Under the pieces are notes generated by a model. It was not told the DNA's origin. It ran no database searches and saw nothing but the letters and a program-made list of their open reading frames with translations. From contig JAHECV010000005.1 of assembly GCA_024641555.1 (NCBI GenBank), forward strand, positions 1 to 35,910: a stretch of DNA of 35,910 nt, written 5' to 3'. A program made the position numbers and the translations under genes. Below are positions 8,191 to 31,962 of this stretch, piece by piece (position 1 is the first letter of the stretch; each line of letters begins with the position of its first letter). This stretch comes from Candidatus Planktophila sp. (lineage in GTDB: Bacteria; Actinomycetota; Actinomycetes; Nanopelagicales; Nanopelagicaceae).

Positions 8191-8203
8191 TCGTATAGGA
8201 TTT
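8191..8203 (+). promoter_or_regulatory. Putative -10 element TCGTATAGGATTT before the lactate dehydrogenase operon
   Basis: TAGGAT (8196-8201) fits the actinobacterial -10 pattern TANNNT and sits 27 bases before the TTG start at 8229, leaving room for a short leader with the ribosome site AAAGGTGG. The 13-base string differs by one base from TCGTATAGTATTT at 22621-22633 in the main divergent control region. No good -35 hexamer was found at the normal spacing. Confidence 0.45.
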
Positions 8204-8228
8204 GGCAATTACGAAAGGTGGACGGGTT

Positions 8229-9494
8229 TTGGCTAAGAAGAATGTGAAACGCCAGTTTCCGAAAGTAAGTGAACTCGCACCTTTACTAAAGTTCGCCCTC
8301 CCCTCTTTTCCTTCTCGCAAGAAACGCCTTGCCAAAGCGATCACGATCTGGGATCTGCGCACCATTGCCAAACGTCGTACACCTTCAGGCCCCTTTGATT
8401 ACACCGATGGTTCAGCAGAATCAGAACTCACTTTAGATCGGGCCCGTCGCGCATTCTTAGATTTGGAATTTCGGCCAAATATTTTGCAGGATGTTTCGCA
8501 AGCTTCACTGCAATGCGAAGTACTCGGCGAAAGTTTTGCCATGCCGGTCGGAATTGCGCCAACTGGCTTTACCCGGATGATGCATACCGAAGGTGAAATT
8601 GCTGGTGCGCGTGCTGCAGCAAAATTTGGTATTCCATTTTCGCTCTCCACTTTAGGTACAACAACTATCGAAGATGTCGTTGCGGCTGCTCCAGGCGGAA
8701 CTAATTGGTTCCAGTTGTACATGTGGAAAGACCGTGATGCCAGCATGGAGCTAGTTCGACGCGCCCAGGCCGCCGGTGTAAAGAATTTAATGCTAACCGT
8801 AGATGTTCCAGTTGCGGGAGCGCGCCTGCGCGATGTGCGTAATGGTCTAACTGTGCCACCGCGCCTAACTGGAAAGACGTTAATTGATGCCATGCCGCGT
8901 CCAGAATGGTGGATTAACTTTCTAACAACTCCTGCGATCACCTTTGCCACTATGAAGAATTGGAAAGGCACGGTTGCAGAACTTCTAGATTTCATGTTCG
9001 ACCCCACAATGACCTTCGAAGATCTCAAATGGATACGTAAGCAATGGGATGGGCAGCTAACGATTAAAGGTATTCAGACCGTGGAGGATGCTAAAAAAGC
9101 AGCGAAATACGGGGCTGATGCGATCATTTTATCTAACCACGGCGGCCGCCAATTAGATCGCGCACCAGTTCCACTACATCTCTTAGTAGATGTTAAGAAA
9201 GAATTGAAGAAAGATCTCGAAGTGCATCTTGATACCGGCATCATGCACGGCGCCGATATATTGGCTGCTATCGCGTTGGGCGCTGATTTCACTTATATCG
9301 GTCGCGCATATCTTTACGGTCTAATGGCCGGTGGCCAAGAAGGCGTAGAACGAGCGCTAACTATTTTGCGTGGTGAAATGGTTCGTAATATGAAGTTGCT
9401 TGGCGTTAACGCACTCGAAGAACTTGAACCAAAGCATGTTCGTCTCTTGCCAACCCATACGGGACTTGGCTCACTACCTGGAGGAAATAAATGA
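8229..9494 (+). CDS. lldD: FMN-dependent alpha-hydroxy-acid dehydrogenase (L-lactate dehydrogenase-like)
   Basis: A 421-residue enzyme of the glycolate oxidase/L-lactate dehydrogenase family, which oxidises L-2-hydroxy acids with FMN. TTG at 8229 is chosen since AAAGGTGG lies seven bases upstream; an in-frame TTG at 8202 overlaps the presumed -10. Residues seen: IAPTGFTRM (substrate loop), [27 protein letters not shown], the FMN Lys in TIKGIQ (about 280), SNHGGRQLD (302-310) with catalytic His 304, and the phosphate site near [12 protein letters not shown] and YIGRAYLYG. It overlaps the following FAH-family gene by ATGA. In oxidative L-fucose breakdown the last cleavage yields L-lactate, so this enzyme would convert it to pyruvate. 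Mandelate or glycolate oxidation are alternatives on family grounds. Confidence 0.88.
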
Positions 9495-10339
9495 AGATCG
9501 CACGTATCGGAGCTGTAGGTAGCGAAAAGCCAGTTGTTGTAGAAGGTGACCAAGCGATAGATGTGAGTTCGCTAGTTAGCGATTGGAACCGGACCGAGCT
9601 GGAAAATGGTGGCTTCGCCAAAGTCGCTCAGGCAGATCTCTCCTCACTTCCTCGCACTTCCTTAGCTGGTGTGCGCTACGGATCTCCCGTGGCGCGCCCC
9701 ACAAAAGTTATCTGTGTGGGGCTTAACTACATCGCCCATATCGCTGAAACTGGCGCTGATACTCCGCAAGAGCCGGTAATTTTCATGAAGGCGCCAGATT
9801 CAGTTATTGGTCCTAACGATGACATCGTGATTCCGCCAAATAGCAAAGCTACAGATTATGAAGTTGAACTCGCCATTGTTATAGGAAAACGAGCGCTTTA
9901 CTTAGATTCTCCGAAAGATTCAGCGGCTCACATCTTGGGATACACAATTTCGCAAGATGTTTCAGAGCGCCACTGGCAGATCGAACGCTCTGGCCAATGG
10001 GTTAAAGGAAAATCGTTTCCAACATTTAATCCAATTGGTCCGGTAATTGTTTCGGAAGATGCAATTGATGCTCACAACTTGCGCCTATGGTGTGAAGTAG
10101 ATGGCGTTATGAAACAAGATTCCAACACCAATGACTTGTTATTTGGTATCGACCATATCGTTTGGTACATCAGTCAGTTTATGGAGCTCTTTCCTGGAGA
10201 CGTAATCAATACAGGCACACCATTTGGTGTTGGTCTTGGATTTAAGCCACCGGTTTACTTACATGGTGGCCAGAAGATCCGCACTGGAATTGATGGTATT
10301 GGTGTGATCCAAAATAACTGCGTGGATTTCAAGAAGTAA
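9491..10339 (+). CDS. Fumarylacetoacetate hydrolase-family enzyme, likely 2,4-diketo-3-deoxy-L-fuconate hydrolase
   Basis: A 282-residue FAH-family protein. The conserved core is [18 protein letters not shown] (from residue 73), [16 protein letters not shown], then the metal-binding [12 protein letters not shown] with Glu 124 and Glu 126, Asp 156 in [10 protein letters not shown], and catalytic Lys 174 in KGKSFPTF. All metal ligands are intact. In the L-fucose and L-rhamnose oxidative routes an enzyme of this family hydrolyses the 2,4-diketo-3-deoxy acid to pyruvate and L-lactate, which fits the FucD and KDF-dehydrogenase genes in this cluster and the coupled lactate dehydrogenase gene just upstream. 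Strong ribosome site GGAGGAA. It ends 1 base from the end of the convergent SDR gene. A hydratase or decarboxylase role is possible but less supported. Confidence 0.85.
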
Positions 10340-10340
10340 A

Positions 10341-11132
10341 TTACTTTGGTAAATCAAAGATCGCGAGCGTGCTGGTAAAGCCGCCGTCGATCTGAATATC
10401 TGTACCAGTCACAAAATCCGACGCGCTAGATGCGAAGTATGTAGCAATTCCAGCGAAATCCGCCGGTGATCCCCATCGTCCTGCGGGCGTGCGCGATAAG
10501 ACGTGTTCTTGTAGACCTGGAACCGCGCGCGTCACCGAAGTCATATCGGTAACAATCCATCCCGGCAGGATGGTATTTACTTGAATATTATCTGCGCCCC
10601 ATGCTGCCGCCAGAGATTTTCCTAATTGAACAACGGCGCCTTTAGTTGCGGAGTAAACCGGTGCTACACCTAAACCTTGCACGCTAGTAAGCGAACCGAT
10701 CAAGATTATTTTTCCTCCCCCGCGCTTTTTCATTTCGGGATAAACCAACTGCGCACAATGGAAGACCGCTTTAAGGTTTACATCGATAATCTCATCAACG
10801 ATATCGTCGGTGTACTCCTCAGGGCGCATTCGAATATTCACCCCTGCATTGGCGATCAAGATATCTATTCCGCCGAAATCTGCAACAGTTGCCTTAGTCG
10901 CAGATTCCAAATCCGCCACAGATTTAACATCTACTTCATAAGATTTTGCAGTAACTCCCAAGGCAGAAAGTTCGGCGACTGCCGCAGCGCTCTTCTCATT
11001 GCTGCGCGCCCAAATTGCAATGCTCGCGCCAGCTGCTGCTAAACCTTTCGCACAACCCAATCCGATTCCACCATTGCCGCCGGTGATTACCGCGACCTTG
11101 CCGGTGAGATCAAAGAGTTGGCTAGAGTTCAA
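10341..11132 (-). CDS. SDR-family oxidoreductase (glucose/gluconate dehydrogenase-like)
   Basis: A 263-residue classical short-chain dehydrogenase. Cofactor motif TGGNGGIG (residues 17-24), NAG (95-97), catalytic Ser 147, Tyr 160 and Lys 164 (YSATK) are all present, with the closing PGWIVTDM and IDGGFT. Asp is absent after beta-2 (IAIWARSNE with Arg), hinting at NADP preference. The overall look is that of 2-deoxy-gluconate 3-dehydrogenase or glucose 1-dehydrogenase relatives, so it could oxidise a sugar or deoxy-sugar acid. It is the last gene of the long leftward operon and overlaps the Gfo/Idh gene by 11 bases. In this context it could serve as a second sugar dehydrogenase, or act on the product of one of the extra enolase-family dehydratases. 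Confidence 0.85.
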   Translation of the reverse strand: MNSSQLFDLTGKVAVITGGNGGIGLGCAKGLAAAGASIAIWARSNEKSAAAVAELSALGVTAKSYEVDVKSVADLESATKATVADFGGIDILIANAGVNIRMRPEEYTDDIVDEIIDVNLKAVFHCAQLVYPEMKKRGGGKIILIGSLTSVQGLGVAPVYSATKGAVVQLGKSLAAAWGADNIQVNTILPGWIVTDMTSVTRAVPGLQEHVLSRTPAGRWGSPADFAGIATYFASSASDFVTGTDIQIDGGFTSTLAIFDLPK

Positions 11133-12198
11133 CAGAAACCGCGGTATCCATTGATTTATAGAGAGCTTCTACCATTTTAAGTGTTCCGATATTGTCGGCA
11201 ACAGATGCGCGAAGTGGCGCGCCAGTAGAAATCGCATCCATAACCGATCCCATCGTTCCGATGAAAGCATCAGGGAACCAACGAGTTGTAACCGGATAAG
11301 GCATCCAACCATCGGTTGGAACCACTTGCGAATTAACTTCGAGAGTATCTACGCGACCGTTGGGATAGTCATAAAGCAGGCCTAAAGTGCCACGAATCGA
11401 ACCTTTATCGCCATCGATACGGTACTCGGCATAGTTATCACCACCGCGGTTAACATGGTTGGCATGAACCAGCGAGGTTACGCCGTTGCTATATAGAGCA
11501 GTTGAAATTGTACGCGTTTCGCCTTTTGGAAATTGTCCGGCGGTACGTCCGGCTGCGCAGAAAACAGTCTTGGCATCTCCCAAGAACCAACGAATCAAGT
11601 CGTGATAATGAATTGAGTGCAACATAACTTCTAAGCGCTCGAGATCCTTCGCCCATGGCCACAGTTCCCAAGGGGTAATGAGATTTACATTGATTGAGAA
11701 GTTGCTGACAGTTCCGATCCAACCGAGCTCAACCATCTTATGGGCGGCAGCGACACCTTCTTCAAATCGAAGTTGTTGATTTACGGCGGCGATGATGCCA
11801 GCATCTTTTGCTTGCTTGACCATCGCCTCACCGGCTGCAACTGTTGTGGCAAATGGTTTCTGCGCCAAGATATGTTTTTTTGCAGCAGCAACTTGCGCAA
11901 ATATTTCTGGTTGAGCGGCAGCTGGAACAGCGATATCTACGATCTCAACCTTTGGATCGGCTAATAACTCAGCGAGTGTTTTATAGACGATCGGGATACC
12001 GTGGCGCTTTGCAACATCCTGTGCCTTCGCGTTATCGGTATCAAAGATTGCAACTACTTCTAGACCCGCTTTCTTGTAAGCAGGAAGATGTGCGCCATCA
12101 ACGATACCGCCAGCGCCGCAAATACCTATTTTTCGCCTATTTTCTGGCTTAACTTCTAGTTTTACCGCATCAGCGATTTCGCGAAATTGATCGATCAT
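11122..12198 (-). CDS. Gfo/Idh/MocA-family NAD(P)-dependent oxidoreductase
   Basis: A 358-residue protein with an N-terminal Rossmann fold: [20 protein letters not shown] then [10 protein letters not shown] (about residues 21-52), the second signature AQKPFATTV in place of the more usual EKPxA, and a C-terminal alpha/beta substrate domain with [16 protein letters not shown] containing the usual His-Asp pair. Enzymes of this family oxidise or reduce sugars, inositols and their acids. The ribosome site AAGGAG precedes the ATG at 12198 by six bases, while its start overlaps the MaoC gene stop by four bases. Substrate unknown. Its place in the fucose operon suggests a deoxysugar or its derivative; it could replace the aldo/keto reductase as sugar dehydrogenase. 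Confidence 0.88.
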
Positions 12199-12728
12199 GG
12201 TTGCTCCTTACCTTCGGCCTTTAGGTTCTCGGCTTGAGATGTGCGATAGAGAACGGTCTGTAAATGTTCGGTGTATAGAACTAACTCTTCATTATCGGCA
12301 CGAAATATTTCGTAACTAACTTTAAAGAGCCCCATATTTTCGTATTTTGGCGTCTTCTCTAAAAGCGTGCGCATTCCGTAAATGGTGTCGCCAATAAAAG
12401 TTGGCTTGATGAAGCGCAACTTGTCATATCCGTAACTAAAAGTGTTGACATTGTTATGGGCAAATAAACCAAGTCCATAGCTAAATACCATTGCGCCTGG
12501 GACTAAACGCTTCTTGAAGAGCCCGTGCTCGCGCGCCCAGATATCATCACCAACATAGGGATGCATATCTAAAACGAGCGAATTAAAGAGCATCACCTCA
12601 CCTTCTGAGATGGTGCGGCGAAGCGAACGGTCAACTTCTCCTACTTGATAGTCCTCATAGAGTTTTACATCCTGATTCCAGATCGGAATTTCATAACGTG
12701 CTTGTGGGTCTGGATTTGGATTTTTCAT
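12195..12728 (-). CDS. MaoC-like hot-dog protein, catalytic His missing
   Basis: A 177-residue single hot-dog-fold protein of the MaoC group, whose active members hydrate enoyl-CoA thioesters. Conserved family features are [14 protein letters not shown], the central [14 protein letters not shown], and [20 protein letters not shown]. In the active-site segment the usual pattern G-D-x-x-P-x-H reads L-D54-M-H-P57-Y-V59: the Asp is kept but the His two residues after Pro is Val. His 56 could substitute, or the protein may be a non-catalytic partner of the second MaoC gene (15784-16224). Strong ribosome site GAGGAG. It is flanked by a CoA transferase gene and the Gfo/Idh gene in one operon, pointing to a CoA-ester step. 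Confidence 0.82.
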
Positions 12729-12739
12729 CTCTGCTCCTC

Positions 12740-13921
12740 TTATATCCCGAACTCTTTACGGATTTTTTCGGTATCTTCGCCAACGTGTGGTGCGCCTTTA
12801 GAATGCTTAACGGTGCGGCCATCGATTCGCATCGGTGAACGCGTGGTTGGAATCGTAATCTGGGATCCGTCTTTTCCAGTTCGCTCGGTCTTTTGCACCA
12901 TATCGATTGCGTCAAAACCTTCATGCGCGACTAGTTCGGGCAAGGTCAATACAGGAGCGCACCAGATATCTGCCGCATCTAAGATCGAAAGCCAGTGATC
13001 GGTATCTTGCGTTGCGATCTTCGCACTTAACGCCTTCATGATCGCTTCTTGATCGCTCCACCAAGATTTTGGATCTTCATACTTATCTAGATCTACGCCC
13101 AATAAATTTCCAAGTGCAGGAATCGGCGTCATTGCAATCGCTAAATAGCCGTTTTTAGTGGGATAAAGGCCATATGGCGCAGGTAGAAAAGCGTGTGCTG
13201 AATTTCCGGCGCCGCGATTAACAACAACGTTTGGATCGAAGAGATTTGCCGAAATTAATTCGAACTGTAGATCGAGCATAGATTCGAGCAGACTTGATTC
13301 AACCATCCCACCTTTACCGGTGCGTTCCCTGCGCAACAAAAGAGCCATTACACCAGAAGCTAGATGTGTTGATGTAAAGATATCGGCAACTGCCAATCCA
13401 ACTGGAATCGGTGGATCACCCGCGCGACCATTTAGCCATGGCAGACCAGAAATACTCTGCGCCAACAAATCTTGGCCGGGGCGATCTTTAAATGGGCCTT
13501 CTGCGCCATAACCAGTTGCACTTCCATAAATAATTTTTGGATTTACTTTCTTTACATCTTCATAGCCAAGTCCAAGACGCTCAATGACCCCCGGACGGAA
13601 GTTTTGAATAATTACATCTGCTTTTTTAACGAGCTCCCAAACTTGGGCAAGTCCTTCTGAGTTTTTTAAATCAGCCGCAAAACTTTCCTTATTGCGATTC
13701 ATAATATGGAAAGAGAGAGTGTCGCCATCTTTCTCCAAGCCTGCAAATGCCAAAGTGCGACCTATATCGCCGGTACCTGGTCTTTCAATCTTTATAACTC
13801 GAGCTCCCATATCGGCAAGGCGCATTGCTGCAACCGGACCGGCGAGAAACTGTGAGAAATCTAAAACCAGAATTCCATTTAAGGGAAGATCTGATTTATC
13901 CAATGGTTCTTTAATCGACAT
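12740..13921 (-). CDS. CaiB/BaiF-family (class III) CoA transferase
   Basis: A 393-residue class III CoA transferase, near the normal 400. The ATG at 13921 overlaps the mutarotase gene by 11 bases and begins [20 protein letters not shown] then [20 protein letters not shown], the usual N-terminal signature; the frame extends upstream to 13999 but that segment lies inside the mutarotase gene. Other landmarks: [51 protein letters not shown], and the catalytic Asp 151 in [10 protein letters not shown]. Such enzymes move CoA between carboxylic acids through an Asp-anhydride intermediate. Donor and acceptor are unknown. No fucose-pathway step needs CoA, so this gene, with two MaoC genes, implies an additional branch. 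Confidence 0.9.
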
Positions 13922-14234
13922 GGAAAACTTCCGGTATTGCCGCCCACCATTCGCCATCGGCGCGATCAGCAACTGGTGATTGCAAAGGCTTACAGACATC
14001 CCACCATTTCTGGGTCATTGGATCTGCCGCCATCTTTGCCATATCAGCATCGAAATCAGAACCAATGTATTCAAAGTAAGAGAAGAGAAGTTCGCCATAG
14101 CGATAAATTGAATAGTTGCGGATATTGCATTCGTAGATCTTGGCCAAGACATCTGGCCATACATCAGCGTGTAAACGCTCATATTCAGCGCGGTTTTCCG
14201 GTTTCATTCCGATTACTGAGGCATAACGTGTCAT
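13911..14234 (-). CDS. RhaM/YiiL-family 6-deoxysugar mutarotase
   Basis: A 107-residue protein of the L-rhamnose mutarotase family (PF05336), which interconverts alpha and beta anomers of deoxyhexoses. Tyr 18 and His 22 in EYERLHADVWPDVL match the catalytic Tyr and His of the E. coli enzyme, and the Trp pair 77-78 (KWWDV) is present, as is the YSIYRYGELLFSYFEY strand region. Full length for the family. Ribosome site AAGGAG. It stands between the lactonase and CoA transferase genes. Since the cluster contains an L-fuconate dehydratase, L-fucose or a near relative is the likelier substrate than L-rhamnose; the family is known in fucose loci too. Confidence 0.88.
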   Translation of the reverse strand: MTRYASVIGMKPENRAEYERLHADVWPDVLAKIYECNIRNYSIYRYGELLFSYFEYIGSDFDADMAKMAADPMTQKWWDVCKPLQSPVADRADGEWWAAIPEVFHVD

Positions 14235-14243
14235 GACTTCTCC

Positions 14244-15107
14244 TTAACCTAACTTGTAGAAAGCTTTAGCAGTTTTATGGCGCATCCAGGCTTGCTCTTC
14301 AGCGCTAAAGTGTGAGATCACTTCTACTTGCGCCTGCCAGATTTGCGCATAGTTATTGCCGAGAACAATCACTGGCCAGTCTCCACCCATCATTACCCGC
14401 TCTGCGCCGTAACTCTTAACTATGAAATCAACATATGGCTGCCAATCCGCAACGGTCCAATTGGCTAGATCTGAAGCGGTATTTAAGCCCGATAACTTGG
14501 CATAAACATTTGGAAAGGCTGCAATCTCGGCCATAGAAGATGCCCAAGGCTCCATCTCTTTGGCCGCAATTGGTGGTTTTGCAAAGTGATCTACCACGAT
14601 CTTCATATTTGGAAACTTCTTCGCCAAGGTAACCACGTTCTTGGTGTGCTCTGGTTTGATAGAAACATAATCAAAACTCAAACCGGCTTTTTCAACCATC
14701 GCCAAAGTTTCTAAAACTACCGGGCGAGTAATCCAGGCATCATCTGATTCGTACTTTGGATTTGAATAATCGTGGGTTAAGTTGCGTACGCCTTTGAAGT
14801 AAGGGTTCTTCTTAAAAGTTTCAATTGCCGCGCGCGCTTCATTTGGACGATCAAAGGGAATCCAACCCACTACGCCTTGCACAAAATCTGAGTTTGCTGC
14901 GACATCTAACATATAGAAAGTATCTTCATATGTGTCAGCTGCTTGGACTAAAACGGAACTAGTAACACCGGATGCGGGAATTTCGGGAGCAAGTCTTTCG
15001 GGCGTAAAATCATCATAGAGCGGACCATATTCTGGTGCGATCCAAGAATAAGCACGTTCGCTCATTACCCAGAGATGCTGATGAGTATCGATTAGTTCAT
15101 TAGACAT
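14244..15107 (-). CDS. COG3618 amidohydrolase, likely L-fucono-lactonase
   Basis: A 287-residue TIM-barrel metal hydrolase of the amidohydrolase 2 family, COG3618, whose characterised members open L-fucono-, L-rhamnono- and related sugar lactones. The metal site is visible: H9-x-H11 in IDTHQHLW, FKGVRNL after strand 3, H174 in VVDHFAKP, and D243 in GGDWPV. Start at 15107 is preceded by TAGGAG; a 35-base gap with two copies of ATAACTAG separates it from the RraA-type gene. In this cluster it would convert L-fucono-lactone to L-fuconate for the dehydratase. Activity on related lactones such as galactono- or rhamnono-lactone is possible. Confidence 0.88.
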   Translation of the reverse strand: MSNELIDTHQHLWVMSERAYSWIAPEYGPLYDDFTPERLAPEIPASGVTSSVLVQAADTYEDTFYMLDVAANSDFVQGVVGWIPFDRPNEARAAIETFKKNPYFKGVRNLTHDYSNPKYESDDAWITRPVVLETLAMVEKAGLSFDYVSIKPEHTKNVVTLAKKFPNMKIVVDHFAKPPIAAKEMEPWASSMAEIAAFPNVYAKLSGLNTASDLANWTVADWQPYVDFIVKSYGAERVMMGGDWPVIVLGNNYAQIWQAQVEVISHFSAEEQAWMRHKTAKAFYKLG

Positions 15108-15142
15108 ATTTATCTCCTAGTTATCTCTCTAGTTATTTCAAG

Positions 15143-15787
15143 TTACAGAACACCGTAGGCGTTCCATACCTCTCTTACGCTCTTACCAGCTAAAAGATCC
15201 TTTAAAACGCTCTTTTCAGTGGCTGCTCTAGCATTTGCTAATTCGGTTACCTTCGCTAAATGTTGCGCCGGAACTACAACAATTCCATCAGCATCGGCGA
15301 TTACGCCATCACCTGGATTTACTTCGACTCCCCCGCAGATAACTGCAGTGCCCATCGCTTTGACTCGCATTCGTCCTTTGTAATCGTAGGGACGAGTTCC
15401 GTATCCAAACGCCGGGAAATCCAAACCAACTATCTGTTCTGTATCGCGAAGCGGTCCGTCGGCAACTACGCCAGTACCGCCGCGACCTTTCGCCGCTGCA
15501 GAAAATAGTTCACCCCAGAAAGCGGAAAGCGCCTGTCCACCAGTAGCGACCACCGCAACTTCGCCAGGCTTTAAAGTATCGAGAAAATCAATTCCGTCGC
15601 CATAAGGATCTTTTTGATCATATTCGCTATCGGCAACGAACTGGACTGTGGCGGCTAATCCAACAGCGCGCATATTTGGGCGAAGCGCTCTTACCTCTAC
15701 CGACATTGCATTATTGCGAACTCCGATGACATCGAGTGAATCAGAAATCATGGCGCTACGAACTCGCGAATCAAGGTTCCAACTCAT
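15143..15787 (-). CDS. RraA-family aldolase/decarboxylase-like protein
   Basis: A 214-residue protein of the RraA/HMG-aldolase family. Family landmarks are [13 protein letters not shown] near the N-terminus, the [20 protein letters not shown] segment followed by GPLRD with Arg 114 and Asp 115 (pyruvate and metal binding), and [20 protein letters not shown] near the end. Members include 4-hydroxy-4-methyl-2-oxoglutarate and 4-carboxy-4-hydroxy-2-oxoadipate aldolases and oxaloacetate decarboxylases, as well as RNase E regulators. Catabolic context and intact RD motif favour an aldolase or decarboxylase that yields pyruvate. It overlaps the MaoC gene by ATGA, so the two probably act together. 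No such step is known in fucose breakdown. Confidence 0.85.
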
Positions 15788-16224
15788 TTCTTCTTCTCCA
15801 CCATATAGACATGGATAAAAGCAATCACCGTTTCTCCTCGTTGATTAGTAACGGTTACTTGTTCATCAACTAAACCAAAATCTGCGGCACGTTTAGCGTG
15901 TTCGCGTTTTGCCACAATTTCGGCCTTTGAAGTAATGGTGTCACCGATAAAGACTGGTGAGATAAAGCGCACTCGGTCGTAACCATAACTAAATGCCACT
16001 TCATTAATTTCTCCTGCCAGAGCGCCAACTGCGACGCTTAAAATTAAAGTTCCGTGTGCTACACGTTGGCCGAATTCTTGAGTCTTGCACCATTCTGCAT
16101 CCATATGGTGCGGATAAAAATCACCAGTTTGTCCAGCATGAGTGACGATATCTGCCTCAGTGATAGTGCGCCCCATACTTACTCTTGTTGAGTTGAGCAC
16201 ATAATCTTCGAAGTAAAGTTTCAT
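15784..16224 (-). CDS. MaoC-family hydratase, intact active site
   Basis: A 146-residue single hot-dog MaoC protein. The hydratase signature is complete: [12 protein letters not shown] with Asp 35 and His 40, then [16 protein letters not shown] and [20 protein letters not shown]. Expected to hydrate an enoyl-CoA ester or dehydrate a hydroxyacyl-CoA. It resembles the other MaoC gene (12195-12728), especially at FSYGYDxxRFIxPxFIGDTI, so the two are probably related by duplication and could form a heterodimer. Start preceded by AAAGGAAT. It lies between the cytoplasmic binding-protein-like gene (4 bases away) and the RraA-type gene (4-base overlap). Confidence 0.88.
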
Positions 16225-16228
16225 ATCG

Positions 16229-17353
16229 CTATTCCTTTACATATTTCTCACAAGTGGCGGCAATCTCTGCAACTACGCTGGCATTTACCTGCTTCGAAGT
16301 CAATGCGCGATGAATCACAAGTGAACTTTGATATTGAACATCCGGCCAACCAAGTACTCGTGGCCGTACCCAGGCGCGTTCTAAGGTGCGCAAAGTGTTG
16401 CGGAAGAAGTTAAGGGTGTGATCATTTAGCGCACCGTTCTTCCAGGCCGCTAAATTGCCAGGCTGTCCGCCTGCCAAACCATAAGTTGTCGCTTGAATCT
16501 CGGGCATGGAGAGCAGAATTGCTGCAGTTGCTGCGGCTTGCGGATTTTTAGACTTACTTGAGATGGCCACACCGGCCCCACCCAATTGAGATCCGCTAGC
16601 TTGGCCATCAATAGATGGAAGATCTTCATAAACCAGACGGTGCTTTCTAAATCCTTTATGTGAGTAATTGCTATACCCGTACATGCAGATGCCATAAGCG
16701 TATGCATCTTCGCCACTTAAGCGCTCAGCAATGTCGATCGGATTACTTGTTGCACAGAATTCTGGAACTAGCGCTGCTAGTTCAACCATAAATTCGATAA
16801 CTTCAAGTGCAACTTTCTGATTAATAAATTCCTTTGTCGCGGTAAGAGGTGCACCTTTTTGCGCCATTAAAGTTGCAAAAGTGCTAAAAGCATCTACCGG
16901 CTTATATGGCCAAAGCAGTTGGCCAGTTCGAGCTAGGTCAAAGACATCACTCCAAAAAATCGGCGAGCTATCTGCCTTATCGGGACGATAAGCGCTTACT
17001 TGTGCTGCGGTATCAATTGCTAGCGCCCAATGTTTTCCTTGATATTTGTATGATGCATGAGATTGACCAACGCTGGTCTGCGACAGTAGTTCGAGTTGTG
17101 CGGCAGTAGCCAAATCTTCTAGAGCAATTACTGCACCCGCATGGACGGCGTCAGGTACGTGCGGGTGATCAATAATCATTAGATCGTAATTTTCATAAAA
17201 CTCAGAGATATGTTGATCGCCAAATGCCAACAAGGAGCGCGCATCCCACTTGACCGAGATATCGCAGCGCTCTTGCAGCAAATTGTTGGAGTTAACAACT
17301 GAATCAAGACCGCGCGGGTGATCCCACGTCATACCAGTTAATTGTGTAGTCAT
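16229..17353 (-). CDS. Solute-binding-protein-like protein without export signal
   Basis: A 374-residue protein with the layout of a CUT1-type extracellular sugar-binding protein: [26 protein letters not shown] near residue 60-75, [20 protein letters not shown] around 105, [40 protein letters not shown] and a C-terminal [13 protein letters not shown]. Yet it starts [20 protein letters not shown] with no hydrophobic stretch or lipobox, and only 2 bases separate it from the preceding stop, so no longer start can add one. It should be cytoplasmic. A true transporter binding protein exists in the same operon (21230-22537). Possible roles are intracellular ligand sensing or carriage, or a repurposed enzyme; none is shown. 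No ribosome site is visible, so translation is probably coupled to the esterase gene. Confidence 0.7.
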
Positions 17354-17355
17354 CG

Positions 17356-18285
17356 CTAAGCGCCGAGTACCTTATTGATTTCTGCTGCTACCCATTTACG
17401 AATATTGATACCTTCATCAATGTATTTACCGTAGTTAAAGAAACCATGGATCATGCCTGGACAATCTTTATAAGCAACTGGAACTCCGGCGGACTTCAGT
17501 TTCTCAGAGTAGTCAATCCCATCTTGGCGTAGAACATCGTATTCGGCGGTAAACATAATTGCAGGTGCCAGTCCCGAATAATCGGTTGCGCTATGAGGAA
17601 CTGCGTAAGGATTATTGCGATCGGCGGTGCCATTTAAATATTGCTCCCAAAGCCATTTCATTCCGCGTTGCGTTAAGCCATAACCCTCAGCGTTAGGCAC
17701 ATCCGCAGAATCAACATATTGCGGACCATTGCAGGGATAAATTAATAACTGGTAAGCGAGTTTTATCCCACGATCTCGCGCTGCCAAGGCAACTGCCGAT
17801 GCTAGATTTCCGCCCGCGCTGTCGCCTCCCACGCCAATTTTTTCGCTGTTGATATTTAATTCGGCAGAATTAGCGACTACCCATTGGAGACCTTCATAGC
17901 AATCGTTAAAAGGAATTGGGAATTTATGCTCTGGCGCTTTTTGGTAATTAATTGAAACAACTACTGAATTAGTCATGGCAGCTAGCGCTGCACATTGGGC
18001 ATCATATTTTCCGACATAGTTAACGACCCAACCGCCTCCGTGAAAATAGACAAGTCCGTTAAACGGGCCACTTCCTGCAGGTGTGTAAACCTTTATATAA
18101 GTATCAGCGGTGGTAGAGGTGAAGAAGCGGTTATCAATACGCACTGTTGGATCTAGGGGTCCTGATAGATCCGGCTCTCCATGCGATCCGCTACGTGCAA
18201 CAAACGCACCAGCCTCCGAGATGTCAGGGGCGTTGAAAGAAGCCATGCGATCTAAGAAAGATTTTGCTTGTGGGTCTAGCGCCAT
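17356..18285 (-). CDS. Alpha/beta hydrolase, hormone-sensitive-lipase-type esterase
   Basis: A 309-residue cytoplasmic esterase of the HSL/acetyl-esterase group. The oxyanion motif HGGGW is at 82-86, the nucleophile elbow GDSAGG at 154-159 with Ser 156, the acid Asp in EYDVLRQDG (about 255) and His in MIHGFFNYG (about 285). Family length is normal. Such enzymes remove short acyl groups; in this operon a plausible job is deacetylating imported acylated deoxysugars, or opening a lactone. This is inference from context. Its stop is 2 bases before the start of the binding-protein-like gene and its start 15 bases after the aldo/keto reductase gene. Confidence 0.88.
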   Translation of the reverse strand: MALDPQAKSFLDRMASFNAPDISEAGAFVARSGSHGEPDLSGPLDPTVRIDNRFFTSTTADTYIKVYTPAGSGPFNGLVYFHGGGWVVNYVGKYDAQCAALAAMTNSVVVSINYQKAPEHKFPIPFNDCYEGLQWVVANSAELNINSEKIGVGGDSAGGNLASAVALAARDRGIKLAYQLLIYPCNGPQYVDSADVPNAEGYGLTQRGMKWLWEQYLNGTADRNNPYAVPHSATDYSGLAPAIMFTAEYDVLRQDGIDYSEKLKSAGVPVAYKDCPGMIHGFFNYGKYIDEGINIRKWVAAEINKVLGA

Positions 18286-18300
18286 TTTTTTCTCATTTCT

Positions 18301-19251
18301 CTACAAGACTGCTGCAATTTTTTGCCAAATATCTTCGGGCAGTTCCATATCTAAATTCCTGGCGTTACTCAAAATTTCTGCGCTACTGCGGCACCCGATA
18401 AGCACACATTTGACCGCAGGATGACGTAGCGGAAATTGCAAAGCGGCGGCGGTAAGTGGAATGTTTTCTGAATCAAGCACCGCTTTAATTCGCTGCGCCT
18501 TGGCAAGAATCTCATCTGAAGCTGGCGCGTAGTCAAAGGTGGCGCCTTTAACTGGGTTGGCTAAAATTCCAGAATTGAGCACTCCAGCAGCGACGATATC
18601 GACGCCCCGTTCGAGTGCAGCCGGCAGTAGATCAGCGAGTGCTCGTTGATCAAGTAGTGAGTATCTACCAGCGATTAAGACCAAGTCGATATCAGTCTCT
18701 TTAATCATGCGAGCAGGTGTGGCGGATTGATTCATTCCTACGCCAATTGCCTTGATTATTCCTTTATCGCGCATCTTTAAAAGTGCCGGAAAAGATTCGC
18801 GAATAGCTGCATCAGCGTTGTCATCAGGATCATGGATCATCAAGATCTCAATGCTCTCTAACTCCATACGCTCTAGACTTGAGCGAAAAGATTTTTCTAC
18901 TCCACTTTCGGAGAAATCAAAGAGCCTAGTTACTGAAGTATCGGTATCTGCAAATTCTGGCTCTGCTTCATATTCGGTAGGAACGAGTAAACGTCCAATC
19001 TTTGTGGATATTTCAAAAGATGAACGTGGTCGCCCCTTTAGCGATTTTGCCAAACGCCGCTCCGCAGTTCCTTTTCCGTAATGAGGTGCGGTATCAATGT
19101 AGGTAATTCCGTTGCCCAGGGCGCATTCGATTGCGGCATCGCATTCCGATTGCGTCATAGATGTATAGAGACCGCCAAAGGTAGCGGTCCCCAAACCCAT
19201 TTGCGAGATTTCGAGTCCGGTTCTTAACTGAACTCGATCGTTGTGAGCCAT
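18301..19251 (-). CDS. Aldo/keto reductase, candidate L-fucose (aldose) 1-dehydrogenase
   Basis: A 316-residue aldo/keto reductase with the full catalytic tetrad: Asp 53 and Tyr 58 in YIDTAPHYGKG, Lys 84 in STKIGR, and His 140 in LMIHDPDD. The sequence resembles the L-fucose dehydrogenase/D-threo-aldose 1-dehydrogenase and pyridoxal 4-dehydrogenase subgroup (for example the long loop EPEFADTDTSVTRLFDFSES before GVEKSFRSSLERM, and SLLDQRALADLLPAALERGV). It would oxidise the beta-pyranose at C1 to the lactone using NAD(P). It lies directly after the ABC permease genes, next to transport, as expected for the first step of catabolism. Start preceded by weak GAGAAC. Other candidates for this step in the window are the SDR at 10341 and the Gfo/Idh protein. 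Confidence 0.85.
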   Translation of the reverse strand: MAHNDRVQLRTGLEISQMGLGTATFGGLYTSMTQSECDAAIECALGNGITYIDTAPHYGKGTAERRLAKSLKGRPRSSFEISTKIGRLLVPTEYEAEPEFADTDTSVTRLFDFSESGVEKSFRSSLERMELESIEILMIHDPDDNADAAIRESFPALLKMRDKGIIKAIGVGMNQSATPARMIKETDIDLVLIAGRYSLLDQRALADLLPAALERGVDIVAAGVLNSGILANPVKGATFDYAPASDEILAKAQRIKAVLDSENIPLTAAALQFPLRHPAVKCVLIGCRSSAEILSNARNLDMELPEDIWQKIAAVL

Positions 19252-19276: not shown

Positions 19277-20191
19277 CTACTCCTTAATTGAGCCAGAGAG
19301 CATGCCTCGGACTAAACGCTTCTGGGAGAAGAGGAAGACGATCATGATTGGCAAGGCAATCAATACACCGGCCAGGGCGATCTCTGGTTTACCAACAGGA
19401 ACAGAGGTGGCTCCAACAGCTGGGTTAATTGCCGGAGTTGAGTAGAACAAGAAGCCCATACCGATCGGCAAAGTGTAGTTCTCACTCGATGGCAACAAGA
19501 TATAAGGCAAGAAGTAGTTCGCCCAGTTGCCGATAAATGCAAAGAAGGCGAGAAGTGAGATCAGCGGACCAGAAAGTGGCAAGCAGATCTTTAAGTACAA
19601 CTGGAAGTCATTGCAACCATCTATACGGGCTGATTCATATAACTCTTTGGGAATCGTTGTTGAGTAATAGATGTAAGACAAAAAGGCACCGAATGGATAC
19701 AAAGATGAGACCAAAATTACCGAAATTGGCTTATCCATTAGCGAGAGCTTGTCCATCAATACGAATACCGGAACAACCAGCGCCATAGGCGGCACCAACA
19801 TAGTAATCAAAGTTGAAATCAAGAATGTGCGCTTAAATTTGATATTTGAAGCCGTTAATACGAACCCGGCGAGCGATGCGGTAATTGTTGCAATTACAAC
19901 GATTGATCCGGTGTACCAGATTGAGTTCCATGCCCACTTAGCAATAACTCCATCATCGAAGTACTGCAGATTCTTCCAGGCCTTTAAATACCCCCCAAGA
20001 TTTCCAAACATCAATGGATTCTTGTTAGATAAGTCAGCATCAGACTTTGTTGGTGCAAGCAGTAGCCAAATCATTGGCACCAAACTGACAACGGCAAAGA
20101 AAATTAAGAATGCATTTACAAAGAATGATGCGACTGGGTTTTCCTGACGCAAACGGTATGCGCGGCGGTTGATCTTAAGAAGTGATGCCAT
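19277..20191 (-). CDS. Carbohydrate ABC importer permease, MalG type
   Basis: A 304-residue inner membrane permease of the CUT1 family with about six hydrophobic segments. The EAA loop that docks the ATPase is ELYESARIDGCNDFQLYLKI CLPLSGPL (about residues 190-215). The C-terminus LFSQKRLVRGMLSGSIKE is typical of MalG-like subunits. It pairs with the MalF-type protein encoded 3 bases upstream. Specificity cannot be read from it, but the neighbours suggest L-fucose or a similar deoxyhexose. Confidence 0.92.
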   Translation of the reverse strand: MASLLKINRRAYRLRQENPVASFFVNAFLIFFAVVSLVPMIWLLLAPTKSDADLSNKNPLMFGNLGGYLKAWKNLQYFDDGVIAKWAWNSIWYTGSIVVIATITASLAGFVLTASNIKFKRTFLISTLITMLVPPMALVVPVFVLMDKLSLMDKPISVILVSSLYPFGAFLSYIYYSTTIPKELYESARIDGCNDFQLYLKICLPLSGPLISLLAFFAFIGNWANYFLPYILLPSSENYTLPIGMGFLFYSTPAINPAVGATSVPVGKPEIALAGVLIALPIMIVFLFSQKRLVRGMLSGSIKE

Positions 20192-21229: not shown

Positions 21230-22537
21230 TCAGCTTGTGAGAACCTTGTAACCGAGTTGCTTAGCAAGATTTGAAGCGTAAGTTGCAAAGGCATCAAGTG
21301 CCGCCTGAGCATTCTTAGTCTTCTTCAACTCGTTAGACATTGTTCCTTCTTGAGCGCCGTTGGTGTCGTAAGAAACTGGCTTCTCACCTGAGAAGATCTT
21401 CTTTGACTGTTCCAACATTGCTGGATATGGATCTGCTGCGTAGTACTTATCAGATGAGATCTTTGCCTTCCAAAGTGCATTTCCCTTTTGTGAAGCTGGG
21501 AATGTTGGAGCACCCTTTGAGCCATCTGGATTCTTAACATCAACGACGTTGCGCTTGTCTTGAACCATGAAGACTGCAAATGCAAGTGCTTCCTTTGGAT
21601 ACTTAGAGTGAGGAGAAACGGTGTAAATTCCGCCGCCCCATTCGCCTGAGTAGTTAACCTTCTCGCCGGCCCACATTGGCATTGGTGCAGCAGTGATCTG
21701 ACCTGCTGGAACTGCCCATGATGATGCTGGACGGATTACGAATTCACCGAACCATGAAGGTCCGATAGTCATGACAACTTTGCCAGCCTGTCCGTAATCC
21801 TTGATGTAGTCAGCATCCCACGGAGCTGAAGTTGAAAGAACGCCAGAATCAATCATTGGTTGCACAAGCGCTGCTGCGCGTGTGCACTTAGGTGATTTTG
21901 GAGCAATCTTTACAACCGTTGAAGAAGTTGCCTGGTTAACCGGACACTGTGATGGCCATAGGTATCCTGAATAGAAACCTTGTGATCCAAGTGCACCAAG
22001 TGAATAACCTGGGTGGTTCTTAGCAATATCTGCACCGATCTTTGCAAAATCATCCATTGTCTTAGGAACGGTGTAACCCAATTCCTTCATCAACTTGGTA
22101 TTTACCCAAAGCACATCTTGTGCAAGGTCGTTCTTAACGCAGTACCAACCACCGTCAGAACCCTTACACCATTGGTTTCCATCTTTCATATCATCCCAGA
22201 AACCAGCTGGAGCATACTTATCAAGGCGCAAAACGTTATTTGCATCTGCTAGAACTGATACGTCATTTGGTGGACCGAATACAACATCTGGCCAACCTTT
22301 TTTAACGCGGTTAAATAATGAAACTTTCTGTACAAGATCTGCCTGTGCGTGAAGTTCAACCTTCACATCAACTGTTGGCTTCATGATTTGTGCGTACAAC
22401 TTTGCTCCCGGTAGACGCGGTGCATCTACCCAGATTGTGATTGAAGGCTTCGCTGCTTGCGCAGGCATTGCCATCACTGTTGTACCTGCAATTGCAAACG
22501 CACCAGCGATTGCAATTAGTGAGTACTTCTTCTTCAA
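21230..22537 (-). CDS. Sugar ABC importer, extracellular substrate-binding protein
   Basis: A 435-residue CUT1-type binding protein. TTG start at 22537 with AGGGGGAT five bases upstream; the signal peptide MKKKYSLIAIAGAFAIAGTT VMAMPAQA is followed by AKPSITIWVD, a typical mature beginning. There is no lipobox Cys, so it would be cut by signal peptidase I rather than lipid-anchored, which is unusual for a single-membrane bacterium. Binding-lobe features include VKKGWPDVVFGPPNDVSVLA, YSGYLWPSQCPV, PWDADYIKDYGQAGKVVMTI and GEWGGGIYTVSPHSKYPKEA. First gene of the leftward operon and divergent from the fuconate dehydratase operon, so fucose or a fucose derivative is the likely ligand. Confidence 0.9.
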   Translation of the reverse strand: MKKKYSLIAIAGAFAIAGTTVMAMPAQAAKPSITIWVDAPRLPGAKLYAQIMKPTVDVKVELHAQADLVQKVSLFNRVKKGWPDVVFGPPNDVSVLADANNVLRLDKYAPAGFWDDMKDGNQWCKGSDGGWYCVKNDLAQDVLWVNTKLMKELGYTVPKTMDDFAKIGADIAKNHPGYSLGALGSQGFYSGYLWPSQCPVNQATSSTVVKIAPKSPKCTRAAALVQPMIDSGVLSTSAPWDADYIKDYGQAGKVVMTIGPSWFGEFVIRPASSWAVPAGQITAAPMPMWAGEKVNYSGEWGGGIYTVSPHSKYPKEALAFAVFMVQDKRNVVDVKNPDGSKGAPTFPASQKGNALWKAKISSDKYYAADPYPAMLEQSKKIFSGEKPVSYDTNGAQEGTMSNELKKTKNAQAALDAFATYASNLAKQLGYKVLTS

Positions 22538-22637: not shown

Positions 22638-22659
22638 GATATCTTTTTGATATCTTTTT
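22638..22659. repeat. Tandem 11-bp repeat GATATCTTTTT x2
   Basis: Two exact adjacent copies of GATATCTTTTT (22638-22648, 22649-22659) lie just downstream of the inverted repeat and 25 bases before the GTG start at 22685. The 11-base period places both GATATC cores on the same face of the helix. They would fall in the 5' leader of the rightward transcript if TAGTAT at 22626 is the -10. Confidence 0.6.
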
Positions 22660-22684
22660 GCCAAGGCTCGAGGAGAGGCCCAGC

Positions 22685-23770
22685 GTGAAAATCACCAACG
22701 TTGAAGTGATTTTGGAAGAACGTCCCGGATTCACCCCCGCCTTTGTCTGGCGCGATCGAATTCCAGGTTCGGAAGGTGCAACGCTTGGCGCATGGCTTGT
22801 CATCGAAACCGATGCTGGAATTACTGGTTTTGCCTCATCTAACCGTGGCGTAATTCTTCAAGATTATGTAAATCGTCGCTTTCGCCCCGAGTTAATCGGA
22901 CAAGATCCTTTGCAACGCGAACATTTATGGGAGCGCGTGTGGGAGTTAGATCGCATTGAAAGATTTGCTCCCAATTTAACCCACTTAGTTGATGTAGCTC
23001 TTTGGGATATCGGTGGAAAACAAGCCGGACTTCCTGTGCATCAACTATTAGGCGGTTATCGCACTTCGCTTCCCGCGTATGCATCAACGGTTACGTACTC
23101 ATCCATTGCAGAATTTCTCGATATCGCAGACCAAGCACTTGCACTTGGTTATCCGATGATTAAGTTACATGCCTTTGGTGACGCTAAGAAAGATGCACAA
23201 CTCTGTTTGGCCCTGCGCGATCACGTTGGCCCTGATATTGAATTAATGTATGACGGATCTGCCGCGTTTGATTTACAAGATGCAGTTTATCTCGGCCACG
23301 CGTTAGATGAAGCAAACTATCTTTGGTATGAAGAACCAATGCGCGAATTTAGCGTCACTGCTTACAAATGGTTAGGTGAGCGAGTTCGAGTGCCGCTTTT
23401 GCTTGGTGAGGTAACTGACGGTTCGCATATGAACGCGGGAGATTTTGTCGCTACAGGCGTTGCGACCAGCTTGCGCACTAGCACTTTCTTGAAGGGTGGA
23501 TTTACCGGTGCGATGCGGATCGCCCACCTTGCTGATGCATATCACCTGCGCGCAGAAGTGCACGGAATGGGCTTAGAAAGCGCACATTTATGTATGGCAA
23601 TTAAGAATACAACCGCCTACGAATCACTTGTTTGGGGCAATCCAATTAAGCGAGAAGCGCTTGTTCATGCCGATGGACTTGTACATGCTCCTACCGCCCC
23701 TGGCGTTGGATATGAAACTCTCTGGAAAGAGAATGGAATTCCTAAAGGCCTAGAGAAGTACGTGAAGTAA
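22685..23770 (+). CDS. Enolase-superfamily (mandelate racemase-like) protein, KxH type with altered dyad
   Basis: A 361-residue member of the mandelate racemase/muconate lactonising subgroup. GTG at 22685 is chosen for its GAGGAG ribosome site and the usual start KITNVEVIL. Magnesium ligands are in place: Asp 190 (LMYDGSA), Glu 216 (WYEEPM) and Glu 242 (LLGEVTDG). The strand-2 base motif is Lys 160-x-His 162 instead of KxK. In the strand-6/7 Asp-His dyad, His 293 (EVHGMG) is kept but the aligned Asp is Ser 266 (SLRTSTFLKG), compared with RTDVSW in the paralog at 26709. This may mark a dehydratase or epimerase with another mechanism. Its stop overlaps the fuconate dehydratase start by one base. 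The substrate is unknown; an acid sugar from the same route is likely. Confidence 0.85.
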   Translation: MKITNVEVILEERPGFTPAFVWRDRIPGSEGATLGAWLVIETDAGITGFASSNRGVILQDYVNRRFRPELIGQDPLQREHLWERVWELDRIERFAPNLTHLVDVALWDIGGKQAGLPVHQLLGGYRTSLPAYASTVTYSSIAEFLDIADQALALGYPMIKLHAFGDAKKDAQLCLALRDHVGPDIELMYDGSAAFDLQDAVYLGHALDEANYLWYEEPMREFSVTAYKWLGERVRVPLLLGEVTDGSHMNAGDFVATGVATSLRTSTFLKGGFTGAMRIAHLADAYHLRAEVHGMGLESAHLCMAIKNTTAYESLVWGNPIKREALVHADGLVHAPTAPGVGYETLWKENGIPKGLEKYVK

Positions 23771-31834: not shown

Positions 31835-31858
31835 CAAAAACTCCCTCAAATAGATTTT

Positions 31859-31871
31859 AAATCCTATAGGA
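31859..31871 (-). promoter_or_regulatory. TCCTATAGGA palindrome and -10 before the MFS operon
   Basis: The palindrome at 31862-31871 is identical to the one at 26676-26685, and on the minus strand both read TTCCTATAGGATTT. TAGGAT (31866-31861) would serve as a -10 with transcription starting near 31854, just upstream of the GAGGGAG ribosome site. No convincing -35 is present, which would fit either an activator or a weak promoter. Confidence 0.5.
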
Positions 31872-31920
31872 ACTTGCGGTGCGAAAGCGAGCATTTGCAG
31901 CCACTTTGAACTGTTTAATT

Positions 31921-31946
31921 CAAGTAGTTGAAAGTTCAACTACTTG
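31921..31946. promoter_or_regulatory. 26-bp inverted repeat, MarR-like operator
   Basis: CAAGTAGTTGAA (31921-31932) and TTCAACTACTTG (31935-31946) form a perfect 12-bp inverted repeat around AG. The right side overlaps the spacer and the left arm overlaps the -35 of the rightward promoter (31928-31956), so a bound protein would block transcription. The compact near-continuous palindrome with TTGAA/TTCAA core is of the kind bound by MarR-family regulators; no such gene is in the window. Confidence 0.7.
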
Positions 31947-31956: not shown

Positions 31957-31962
31957 TTGAAT

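What the first reader, a model, noticed from the sequence alone, without database searches (positions are those of the whole stretch)
12195..17353. CoA-thioester branch embedded in a fucose operon
Seen: a CaiB-type CoA transferase, two MaoC hot-dog proteins, an RraA-family aldolase/decarboxylase and a cytoplasmic binding-protein-like protein lie interleaved with the mutarotase and lactonase in one tightly packed operon. Known: oxidative L-fucose breakdown ends in pyruvate and L-lactate with no CoA step. Inference: the operon handles a second acid (for example a branched or dicarboxylic acid from a modified deoxysugar) by CoA activation, hydration and aldol cleavage, loosely parallel to mesaconate/citramalate chemistry but lacking a CitE-type lyase. 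This looks like an undescribed module.
Basis: partly seen in the sequence, partly recalled or inferred. Interest (0 to 1): 0.8.

Follow-up and report, generated by a model that had tools for sequence, protein, structure and literature searches.

The report
CoA module attached to fucose breakdown
A set of genes for breaking down the sugar L-fucose carries an extra, widely shared set of genes that seems to attach coenzyme A to a fucose-like acid, together with a sugar-binding protein that stays inside the cell, so these bacteria can probably eat a modified fucose that the normal pathway cannot handle.

Summary
One packed minus-strand operon (22537-10341) contains a class III CoA transferase (CaiB), two MaoC proteins, an RraA protein and a signal-less solute-binding-type protein (SBPc) among L-fucose genes. 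In two genome samples CaiB orthologs occur almost only in genomes with L-fuconate dehydratase (14 of 14; 14 of 15), yet 75 of 103 FucD genomes lack them. So this is an accessory module. Its constant parts are CaiB, SBPc, MaoC and a Gfo/Idh oxidoreductase (each 0 of 20 in FucD-only loci, CaiB by choice); the lactonase is nearly constant too, an importer is usual in Actinobacteria, RraA is optional.

Most likely: a modified L-fucose is oxidised to its acid, CaiB makes the CoA thioester, MaoC catalyses C2-H/C3-O elimination, and the product joins the fucose pathway, like CaiB/CaiD in carnitine metabolism. Sister modules use a crotonase. All reactions are inferred; the substrate is unknown. My searches found no paper describing it.

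The parts
21230..22537 (-). SBPe: exported solute-binding protein of the operon's importer (usual companion of the module in Actinobacteria)
   Evidence: signal peptide-like N-terminus; no Pfam match; ortholog in 34 of 52 module loci, 0 of 20 FucD-only loci, 0 of 9 plasmid loci at the same score
20195..21100 (-). ABCf: importer permease
   Evidence: BPD_transp_1; 34 of 52, 0 of 20, 0 of 9
19277..20191 (-). ABCg: importer permease
   Evidence: BPD_transp_1
18301..19251 (-). AKR: probable L-fucose 1-dehydrogenase (fucose core)
   Evidence: Aldo_ket_red; 35 of 52 module loci and 17 of 20 FucD-only loci; function inferred
17356..18285 (-). ABhyd: HSL-type esterase, optional
   Evidence: Abhydrolase_3; 8 of 52 module loci and 2 of 20 FucD-only loci
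16229..17353 (-). SBPc: cytoplasmic sugar-binding-fold protein, partner of CaiB (module core)
   Evidence: PF13416; AlphaFold model pLDDT 95.9, pTM 0.93; PDB folds LpqY and SmoF; no signal peptide
15784..16224 (-). MaoC1: hot-dog hydratase with Asp35/His40 kept (module core)
   Evidence: MaoC; both at 93% or more of 80 rows; best PDB 4ffu 1.1e-48
15143..15787 (-). RraA-like protein, optional
   Evidence: RraA-like; 25 of 52 module loci, 1 of 20 FucD-only loci
14244..15107 (-). L-fuconolactonase-like amidohydrolase (shared by fucose core and module)
   Evidence: 48 of 52 and 13 of 20
13911..14234 (-). RhaM-family mutarotase (fucose core)
   Evidence: 20 of 52 and 9 of 20
12740..13921 (-). CaiB: class III CoA transferase, Asp177 (numbered from 13999) kept (module core)
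   Evidence: CoA_transf_3; Asp at 93% or more of 81 rows; PDB matches to succinate-HMG and formyl-CoA transferases
12195..12728 (-). MaoC2: hot-dog protein with Val59 where MaoC1 has the catalytic His; probable partner of MaoC1
   Evidence: MaoC; D54/V59 at 93% or more of 27 rows; 17 of 52 module loci
11122..12198 (-). Gfo/Idh/MocA oxidoreductase (module core)
   Evidence: 40 of 52 vs 0 of 20
10341..11132 (-). SDR1 dehydrogenase, optional
   Evidence: 2 of 52 module loci
8202..9494 (+). FMN-dependent L-lactate dehydrogenase-like
   Evidence: FMN_dh; PRK11197 315 bits, cut-off 376
9491..10339 (+). FAH: 2,4-diketo-3-deoxy-fuconate/rhamnonate hydrolase-like
22658..23770 (+). MR_A: enolase-superfamily protein of unknown substrate
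23770..25068 (+). FucD: L-fuconate dehydratase
   Evidence: 2hne 7e-165
25071..25820 (+). SDR2: probable 2-keto-3-deoxy-L-fuconate dehydrogenase
   Evidence: 17 of 20 FucD-only loci; function inferred
25857..26639 (+). GntR/FCD regulator
26709..27830 (+). MR_B: enolase-superfamily protein

Best explanation
An accessory, CoA-dependent sugar-acid module feeds the L-fucose pathway. An importer brings in an L-fucose derivative. Gfo/Idh (or the AKR) oxidises C1 to a lactone and the lactonase opens it to an aldonic acid. CaiB, working with the cytoplasmic sugar-binding protein SBPc that holds the sugar acid, moves CoA onto the carboxylate. MaoC1 (with MaoC2 where present) uses the thioester-acidified C2 proton to eliminate the C3 substituent, giving a 2-keto-3-deoxy-type product. 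CaiB hands the CoA to the next substrate, so CoA is only catalytic, and the freed acid enters the fucose pathway at or near 2-keto-3-deoxy-L-fuconate. The route is needed when FucD cannot act, for example if the 2-OH that it chelates (recalled) is blocked. Shown: gene content, conservation, nesting in FucD genomes, module membership, active-site residues, cytoplasmic sugar-binding fold of SBPc (predicted). Inferred: every reaction, their order, the CaiB-SBPc complex and the substrate.
For: CaiB orthologs nest in FucD genomes: 14 of 14 and 14 of 15, against 43 of 136 and 32 of 136 without them; CaiB paralogs do not (10 of 20; 2 of 12). Of the 28 CaiB-FucD pairs, 20 share a contig and 19 of these lie within 15 kb. 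MaoC 51 of 52 and Gfo/Idh 40 of 52 in module loci, each 0 of 20 in FucD-only loci. Nine module stretches with no other fucose enzyme still hold Gfo/Idh, the lactonase, CaiB and SBPc, eight of them with MaoC (L038-L040, L064, L065, L067, L068, L070, L078), which fits the proposed chain. CaiB adjoins SBPc in 41 of 80 genome-contig loci and 14 of 15 plasmid loci, with a gap of 0-12 bases in 50 of these 55; 36 of the 39 non-adjacent genome loci are L001-L036, the window's nearest relatives by SBPc, where the operon is mostly rearranged. In the sampled family 11 of the 15 CaiB paralog loci returned (41% identity or less) also adjoin an SBPc homolog. Sister modules carry a crotonase instead of MaoC, in pentose-type oxidative clusters with a 2-keto-3-deoxypentonate dehydratase homolog and an aldehyde dehydrogenase (MaoC 0 of 11). 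CaiB Asp177 and MaoC1 Asp35/His40 conserved. SBPc models as a CUT1 sugar-binding protein. A related operon carries a PPDK (L003), fitting pyruvate as product. Alpha-L-fucosidase-type domains lie beside modules that lack FucD in the stretch (L065, L067).
Against: No biochemical or expression data. FucD is present beside 33 of 52 modules, so FucD replacement is not forced. Enolase-superfamily hits accompany 8 of 11 sister loci; the three without (L166, L167, L176) are not clean, because in one genome such a gene lies about 4 kb outside. 19 of 52 module stretches have no FucD, and L045, L057 and L075 hold only core genes. RhaM is in 20 of 52. Alphaproteobacterial loci have importers that do not score as orthologs of the window's (0 of 9), so the importer is not constant. 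SBPc occurs without CaiB in the stretch in L043 and L098. The identity-matrix comparison did not single out CaiB-SBPc. In the order sample 0 of 14 CaiB paralog loci had SBPc within 1.5 kb. In a phylum sample SBPc is rare (3 of 396, the centre genome included).
Confidence: 0.5

Rival explanations
1. A CoA dehydration route for an unmodified but different aldonate (another stereoisomer, such as a 6-deoxyhexonate that FucD and MR_A/MR_B do not accept).
For: Same anatomy; sister modules sit in pentose-type clusters; related loci carry alternative dehydratases such as the UxaA type (L046, L059) or an ILVD-type gene (L024).
Against: Enolase and ILVD enzymes normally cover stereoisomers without CoA (recalled); nesting in FucD genomes points to fucose.
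Confidence: 0.2
2. Disposal of an acyl group: the esterase ABhyd removes an acyl ester from acylated fucose and CaiB/MaoC metabolise the released acid.
For: ABhyd adjoins SBPc in the window and its close relatives.
Against: ABhyd is in 8 of 52 module loci and also in 2 of 20 module-less loci; no acyl-CoA dehydrogenase or thiolase among the 36 window proteins scanned; SBPc is a sugar-binding fold.
Confidence: 0.12
3. One reading: CoA activation, hydration and aldol cleavage of a branched or dicarboxylic acid, mesaconate/citramalate-like, with RraA as aldolase.
For: CaiB and MaoC occur together in mesaconate metabolism (PMC5592240, listing); MaoC1 weakly matches mesaconyl-CoA hydratase (8.5e-5); RraA is enriched in module loci (25 of 52 vs 1 of 20).
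Against: RraA absent from 27 of 52 module loci; best CaiB family score far below its cut-off (206 against 750); SBPc and its setting are of sugar type.
Confidence: 0.08
4. SBPc is a cytoplasmic sensor or regulator, or a relic of an importer, and CaiB/MaoC are an unrelated CoA pathway that hitch-hikes.
For: SBP folds are used as sensors in other systems (recalled); SBPc occurs without CaiB in the stretch in L043 and L098.
Against: CaiB-SBPc adjacency in two subfamilies and two phyla; 47 invariant columns in 47 rows.
Confidence: 0.1

Closest known systems
Carnitine CaiB/CaiD (CoA transferase plus crotonase dehydratase; recalled)
   Same: Class III CoA transferase paired with an enoyl-CoA hydratase-type enzyme, with CoA recycled between acids; sister modules here even use a crotonase
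   Different: Substrate is probably sugar-like, the hydratase in the window is MaoC, and a cytoplasmic sugar-binding protein is the usual partner; no CaiA-like reductase seen among the window proteins scanned
Succinyl-CoA:mesaconate CoA transferase plus mesaconyl-CoA hydratase (PMC5592240, search listing only)
   Same: CaiB-family transferase with a MaoC hydratase
   Different: No lyase seen, no dicarboxylate context; NCBIfam score 187 against a cut-off of 700
Oxidative (non-phosphorylative) L-fucose pathway to pyruvate and lactate (PMC6336799, passages)
   Same: FucD, lactonase, AKR, SDR and FAH candidates all present
   Different: That paper's text has no occurrence of the term CoA; the module is additional
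CUT1 solute-binding proteins such as LpqY and SmoF
   Different: No signal peptide; often encoded directly beside a CoA transferase

Membership tests
Class III (CaiB) CoA transferase | Pfam CoA_transf_3 over the full length | tested here: met
   1.2e-97, profile 1-366 of 366
Class III (CaiB) CoA transferase | catalytic Asp in the PG(Q/Y)DL motif (motif recalled) | tested here: met
   D177 at 93% or more of 81 rows
Class III (CaiB) CoA transferase | CoA transfer activity | not testable with these tools
   needs assay
MaoC (R)-specific hydratase | catalytic Asp and His of the hydratase motif (motif recalled) | tested here: met
   MaoC1 D35/H40 at 93% or more of 80 rows; MaoC2 lacks the His (V59 in 93% or more of 27 rows)
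Mesaconate CoA transferase/hydratase pathway | scores over curated cut-offs of the specific models | tested here: not met
   CaiB 187 of 700; MaoC1 23.7 of 560 bits for the 2-methylfumaryl-CoA hydratase model
Mesaconate CoA transferase/hydratase pathway | CitE-type lyase encoded nearby | tested here: not met
   none among the 36 window proteins scanned
Oxidative L-fucose pathway | L-fuconate dehydratase | tested here: met
   7e-165 to solved L-fuconate dehydratase
Oxidative L-fucose pathway | lactonase and diketo-deoxy-acid hydrolase | tested here: inconclusive
   best family matches are the right kind but below curated cut-offs
ABC importer solute-binding protein (SBPc) | SBP fold | tested here: met
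   predicted model
ABC importer solute-binding protein (SBPc) | export signal | tested here: not met
   no hydrophobic N-terminus; in relatives the CaiB stop lies at the SBPc start
RraA aldolase as part of the module | constant co-occurrence with CaiB/SBPc/MaoC | tested here: not met
   25 of 52 module loci, though only 1 of 20 FucD-only loci, so an optional link remains possible

The most novel reading that the evidence does not exclude
A CoA-dependent lyase route for sugars: the substituent on C3 (or a blocked C2) of an oxidised sugar, such as O-methyl or even a second sugar, is removed inside the cell by thioester-driven beta-elimination. A cytoplasmic sugar-binding protein would be the substrate-holding subunit of the CoA transferase. 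This would replace a glycoside hydrolase, demethylase or classical sugar-acid dehydratase, and exist in parallel versions for different parent sugars (MaoC for fucose, crotonase for pentoses).
Probability: 0.2. Interest if true: 0.85.

Novelty: new variant of a known kind. Interest (0 to 1): 0.62.

Why it matters
CoA thioester chemistry is not part of the oxidative sugar-acid pathways known to me. A module conserved from freshwater-type Actinobacteria to Sinorhizobium and nested in fucose-degrading genomes points to a common but unrecognised fucose derivative in natural organic matter and to a new job for solute-binding proteins inside the cell. The genes carry generic names in the public records that I saw (extracellular solute-binding protein, CoA transferase), so a single assay would re-annotate many loci.

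Tried and rejected
Considered and rejected or left weak: mesaconate/citramalate chemistry (below cut-offs, no lyase seen); RraA as constant module member (it is enriched, though); acyl disposal through ABhyd. The idea that the module simply replaces a missing dehydratase was not established: MR-family hits are present in 8 of 11 sister loci, and an MR gene lies about 4 kb beyond one of the three exceptions. Co-evolution of identity matrices did not discriminate. Literature: searches gave 0 papers; searches gave none describing the module in the listings or the passages read; one search looked for PDB codes only. Only open-licence PMC papers are searched. Passages read: PMC11378808, PMC9007349, PMC10444878, PMC3454389, PMC4207669, PMC7535918, PMC6336799, PMC12911387, PMC12263773. 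Fitness data for S. meliloti on L-fucose exist as far as I recall; I did not see them. The fold searches list SBP folds (and MBP fusions) in the rows shown; absence of an enzyme fold there proves nothing.

Limits: L001-L080 were chosen by SBPc similarity, so SBPc presence in them is by construction. L166-L177 were chosen because CaiB and SBPc adjoin. The 20 FucD-only loci were picked by hand from 75 genomes without a CaiB ortholog. Genomes are related, so Fisher p-values (4e-7 and 1e-7) are nominal; the genome lists were transcribed by hand. Gene calls in fetched loci are my own six-frame ORFs with HMMs built from loci of the same set; high-GC overlaps can hide genes. Score cut-offs were set by me.


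Full report
What is there. The window is from an Actinobacterium closely related to isolate IMCC26103, whose genome holds the same gene order from MR_B to the helicase gene at 87-98% protein identity (L002). Genes SBPe, ABCf, ABCg, AKR, ABhyd, SBPc, MaoC1, RraA, lactonase, RhaM, CaiB, MaoC2, Gfo/Idh and SDR1 run on the minus strand from 22537 to 10341, with overlaps or gaps of at most 35 bases except 129 bases after SBPe. Beside them on the plus strand are MR_A, FucD, SDR2, GntR and MR_B, and LldD and FAH. FucD is a clear L-fuconate dehydratase. Together AKR, lactonase, FucD, SDR2, FAH and LldD make a plausible oxidative L-fucose route to pyruvate and lactate (assignments by family; pathway from PMC6336799, passages).

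Does the set recur? An SBPc profile found 98 relatives in genome contigs, of which 80 were returned: MAGs of freshwater-type Actinobacteria, Microbacteriaceae, Kribbella, Nocardioides, Microlunatus, Acidimicrobiaceae and one Phycisphaeraceae MAG. Gene strings show CaiB, SBPc, MaoC and Gfo/Idh together with fucose genes. On plasmids, 145 records have SBPc, 90 of them Sinorhizobium. Eight annotated examples (Shinella, Martelella, Pararhizobium, Roseibium, Roseateles sp. XES5, Nitratireductor, Thalassospira, Ponticoccus) show CaiB next to SBPc, an importer, a mutarotase and Gfo/Idh, seven of the eight with MaoC in the stretch. L-fuconate dehydratase is annotated further along in all three that I extended. 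Their importers do not score as orthologs of the window's.

Is it linked to fucose breakdown by more than selection? I searched two genome samples (the family of marine actinobacterium PHSC20C1 and the order of IMCC26103) with CaiB and with FucD. Full-length hits to CaiB are bimodal: orthologs at 63-68% (family) or 73-95% (order), paralogs at 41% or less, with one genome at 48-51% between. Orthologs: 14 of 150 and 15 of 151 genomes; FucD: 57 and 46. Overlap 14 of 14 and 14 of 15, the miss being a genome where CaiB itself is cut off by a contig end. CaiB paralogs show no such overlap (10 of 20 and 2 of 12). But 75 of 103 FucD genomes have no CaiB ortholog. So the module depends on the fucose pathway and not the reverse. 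Against this: 19 of 52 module stretches lack FucD, and three hold only core genes (L045, L057, L075); I did not search those genomes for FucD elsewhere.

Which genes belong to it? I compared 52 module loci of at least 15 kb with 20 stretches of 18 kb around FucD from genomes without a CaiB ortholog (20 of 75 available). MaoC 51 of 52 vs 0 of 20, Gfo/Idh 40 vs 0, SBPe 34 vs 0, ABCf 34 vs 0 (best FucD-only ABCf score 94, cut-off 200). Lactonase 48 vs 13, AKR 35 vs 17, RhaM 20 vs 9 and FAH 20 vs 8 occur in both. RraA 25 vs 1 is enriched but not constant, ABhyd 8 vs 2 is optional. L255 has RraA, ABhyd, lactonase and RhaM with no CaiB, SBPc, MaoC or Gfo/Idh. In nine plasmid loci SBPc and Gfo/Idh are in 9, CaiB over the cut-off in 8 (the ninth just below), a MaoC in 8. 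Nine stretches with no other fucose enzyme hold Gfo/Idh, lactonase, CaiB and SBPc (L038-L040, L064, L065, L067, L068, L070, L078), eight of them with MaoC, which by itself reads as a chain: oxidise, open the lactone, activate, eliminate.

The CaiB-SBPc pair. CaiB is adjacent on the same strand in 41 of 80 genome-contig loci and 14 of 15 plasmid loci; in 50 of these 55 the gap is 0 to 12 bases. Of the 39 non-adjacent genome loci, 36 are L001-L036, the window's nearest relatives by SBPc, in which CaiB and SBPc usually lie apart in one operon (some contigs are short, and L030/L031 differ). In the family sample, 10 of 14 CaiB orthologs have SBPc within 1.5 kb; two of the other four were fetched at greater length and do hold SBPc (L183, L184). 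There 11 of the 15 paralog loci returned also sit beside an SBPc homolog; in the order sample 0 of 14 do. The pair therefore seems older and broader than the fucose version.

Sister modules. Eleven loci around such paralogs, chosen for CaiB-SBPc adjacency, hold a crotonase family (called in 6 of 11), an FAH-family protein (9 of 11) and an aldehyde dehydrogenase (9 of 11); one member of each was identified by Pfam. None has a MaoC over my cut-off. The FAH member matches 9kkt (2.9e-125) and 2-keto-3-deoxy-D-arabinonate dehydratase (4e-20), so the setting looks like oxidative pentose breakdown to alpha-ketoglutarate. L030 and Sinorhizobium sp. C101 likewise combine SBPc, CaiB and a crotonase with sugar importers and SMP-30 lactonases. 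Replacement of MaoC by the unrelated crotonase fold argues that the shared reaction is hydration or elimination at the CoA-thioester level.

Enzymes. CaiB keeps its Asp, and MaoC1 keeps Asp/His (catalytic roles recalled). MaoC2 has Val in place of the His, so a pair with one working site is likely where both exist; 17 of 52 module loci have MaoC2. The nearest solved structure to MaoC1 is 4ffu, named only oxidase.

How it would work. The logic closest to the data is the carnitine cycle (recalled): a transferase that passes CoA between acids plus an enzyme that eliminates at C3. Enolase-type dehydratases such as FucD bind the 2-hydroxyl to a metal (recalled); a sugar acid whose 2-position is blocked would need another way to acidify C2-H, which a thioester provides. 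A C3-alkoxy or C3-glycosyl group could leave by the same chemistry. That fits a module with no glycoside hydrolase among the 14 operon proteins and with dependence on downstream fucose enzymes. None of these reactions has been shown.

Verdict. I rate interest 0.62.

Noticed in passing
L003:5374-8079; same slot in L010, L013, L014, L017, L022, L024, L025, L029: A pyruvate phosphate dikinase is inserted between importer and AKR in L003 (scanned); the others have an unassigned frame of about 880-916 aa there, not scanned.
   Followed up: partly
L088 (S. meliloti 1021 pSymB) 9295-10457: In the held record of strain 1021 the CaiB reading frame appears as two overlapping pieces, whereas strain ml47 (L089) has it annotated in one piece.
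   Followed up: no
L182 (and L120) and L095: Two CaiB genes in a row (L182), or two on opposite strands (L095), beside SBPc, as if a heteromeric transferase had formed.
   Followed up: no
L179, L180, L181: Small-genome relatives carry the 40% CaiB paralog with SDR genes, in L180 a galactonate-dehydratase-like gene and in L179 a GH88-like gene, and no SBPc within the fetched stretch.
   Followed up: partly
L065:15440-17584, L067:15329-17944, L043:3839-6112: Fucosidase-type glycoside hydrolases (GHL6/Alpha_L_fucos, GH95) beside SBPc loci that lack FucD in the stretch.
   Followed up: partly
window 22658-23770 and 26709-27830: Two enolase-superfamily proteins nearest to 1rvk/4hcd/4mmw, which are named only isomerase/lactonizing enzyme in PDB; MR_A is in 11 of 52 module loci and its substrate is unknown.
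   Followed up: partly
window 31957-32736 and 30680-31939: A LigB-type extradiol dioxygenase and a partial MFS match close to the fucose region, apparently unrelated.
   Followed up: no
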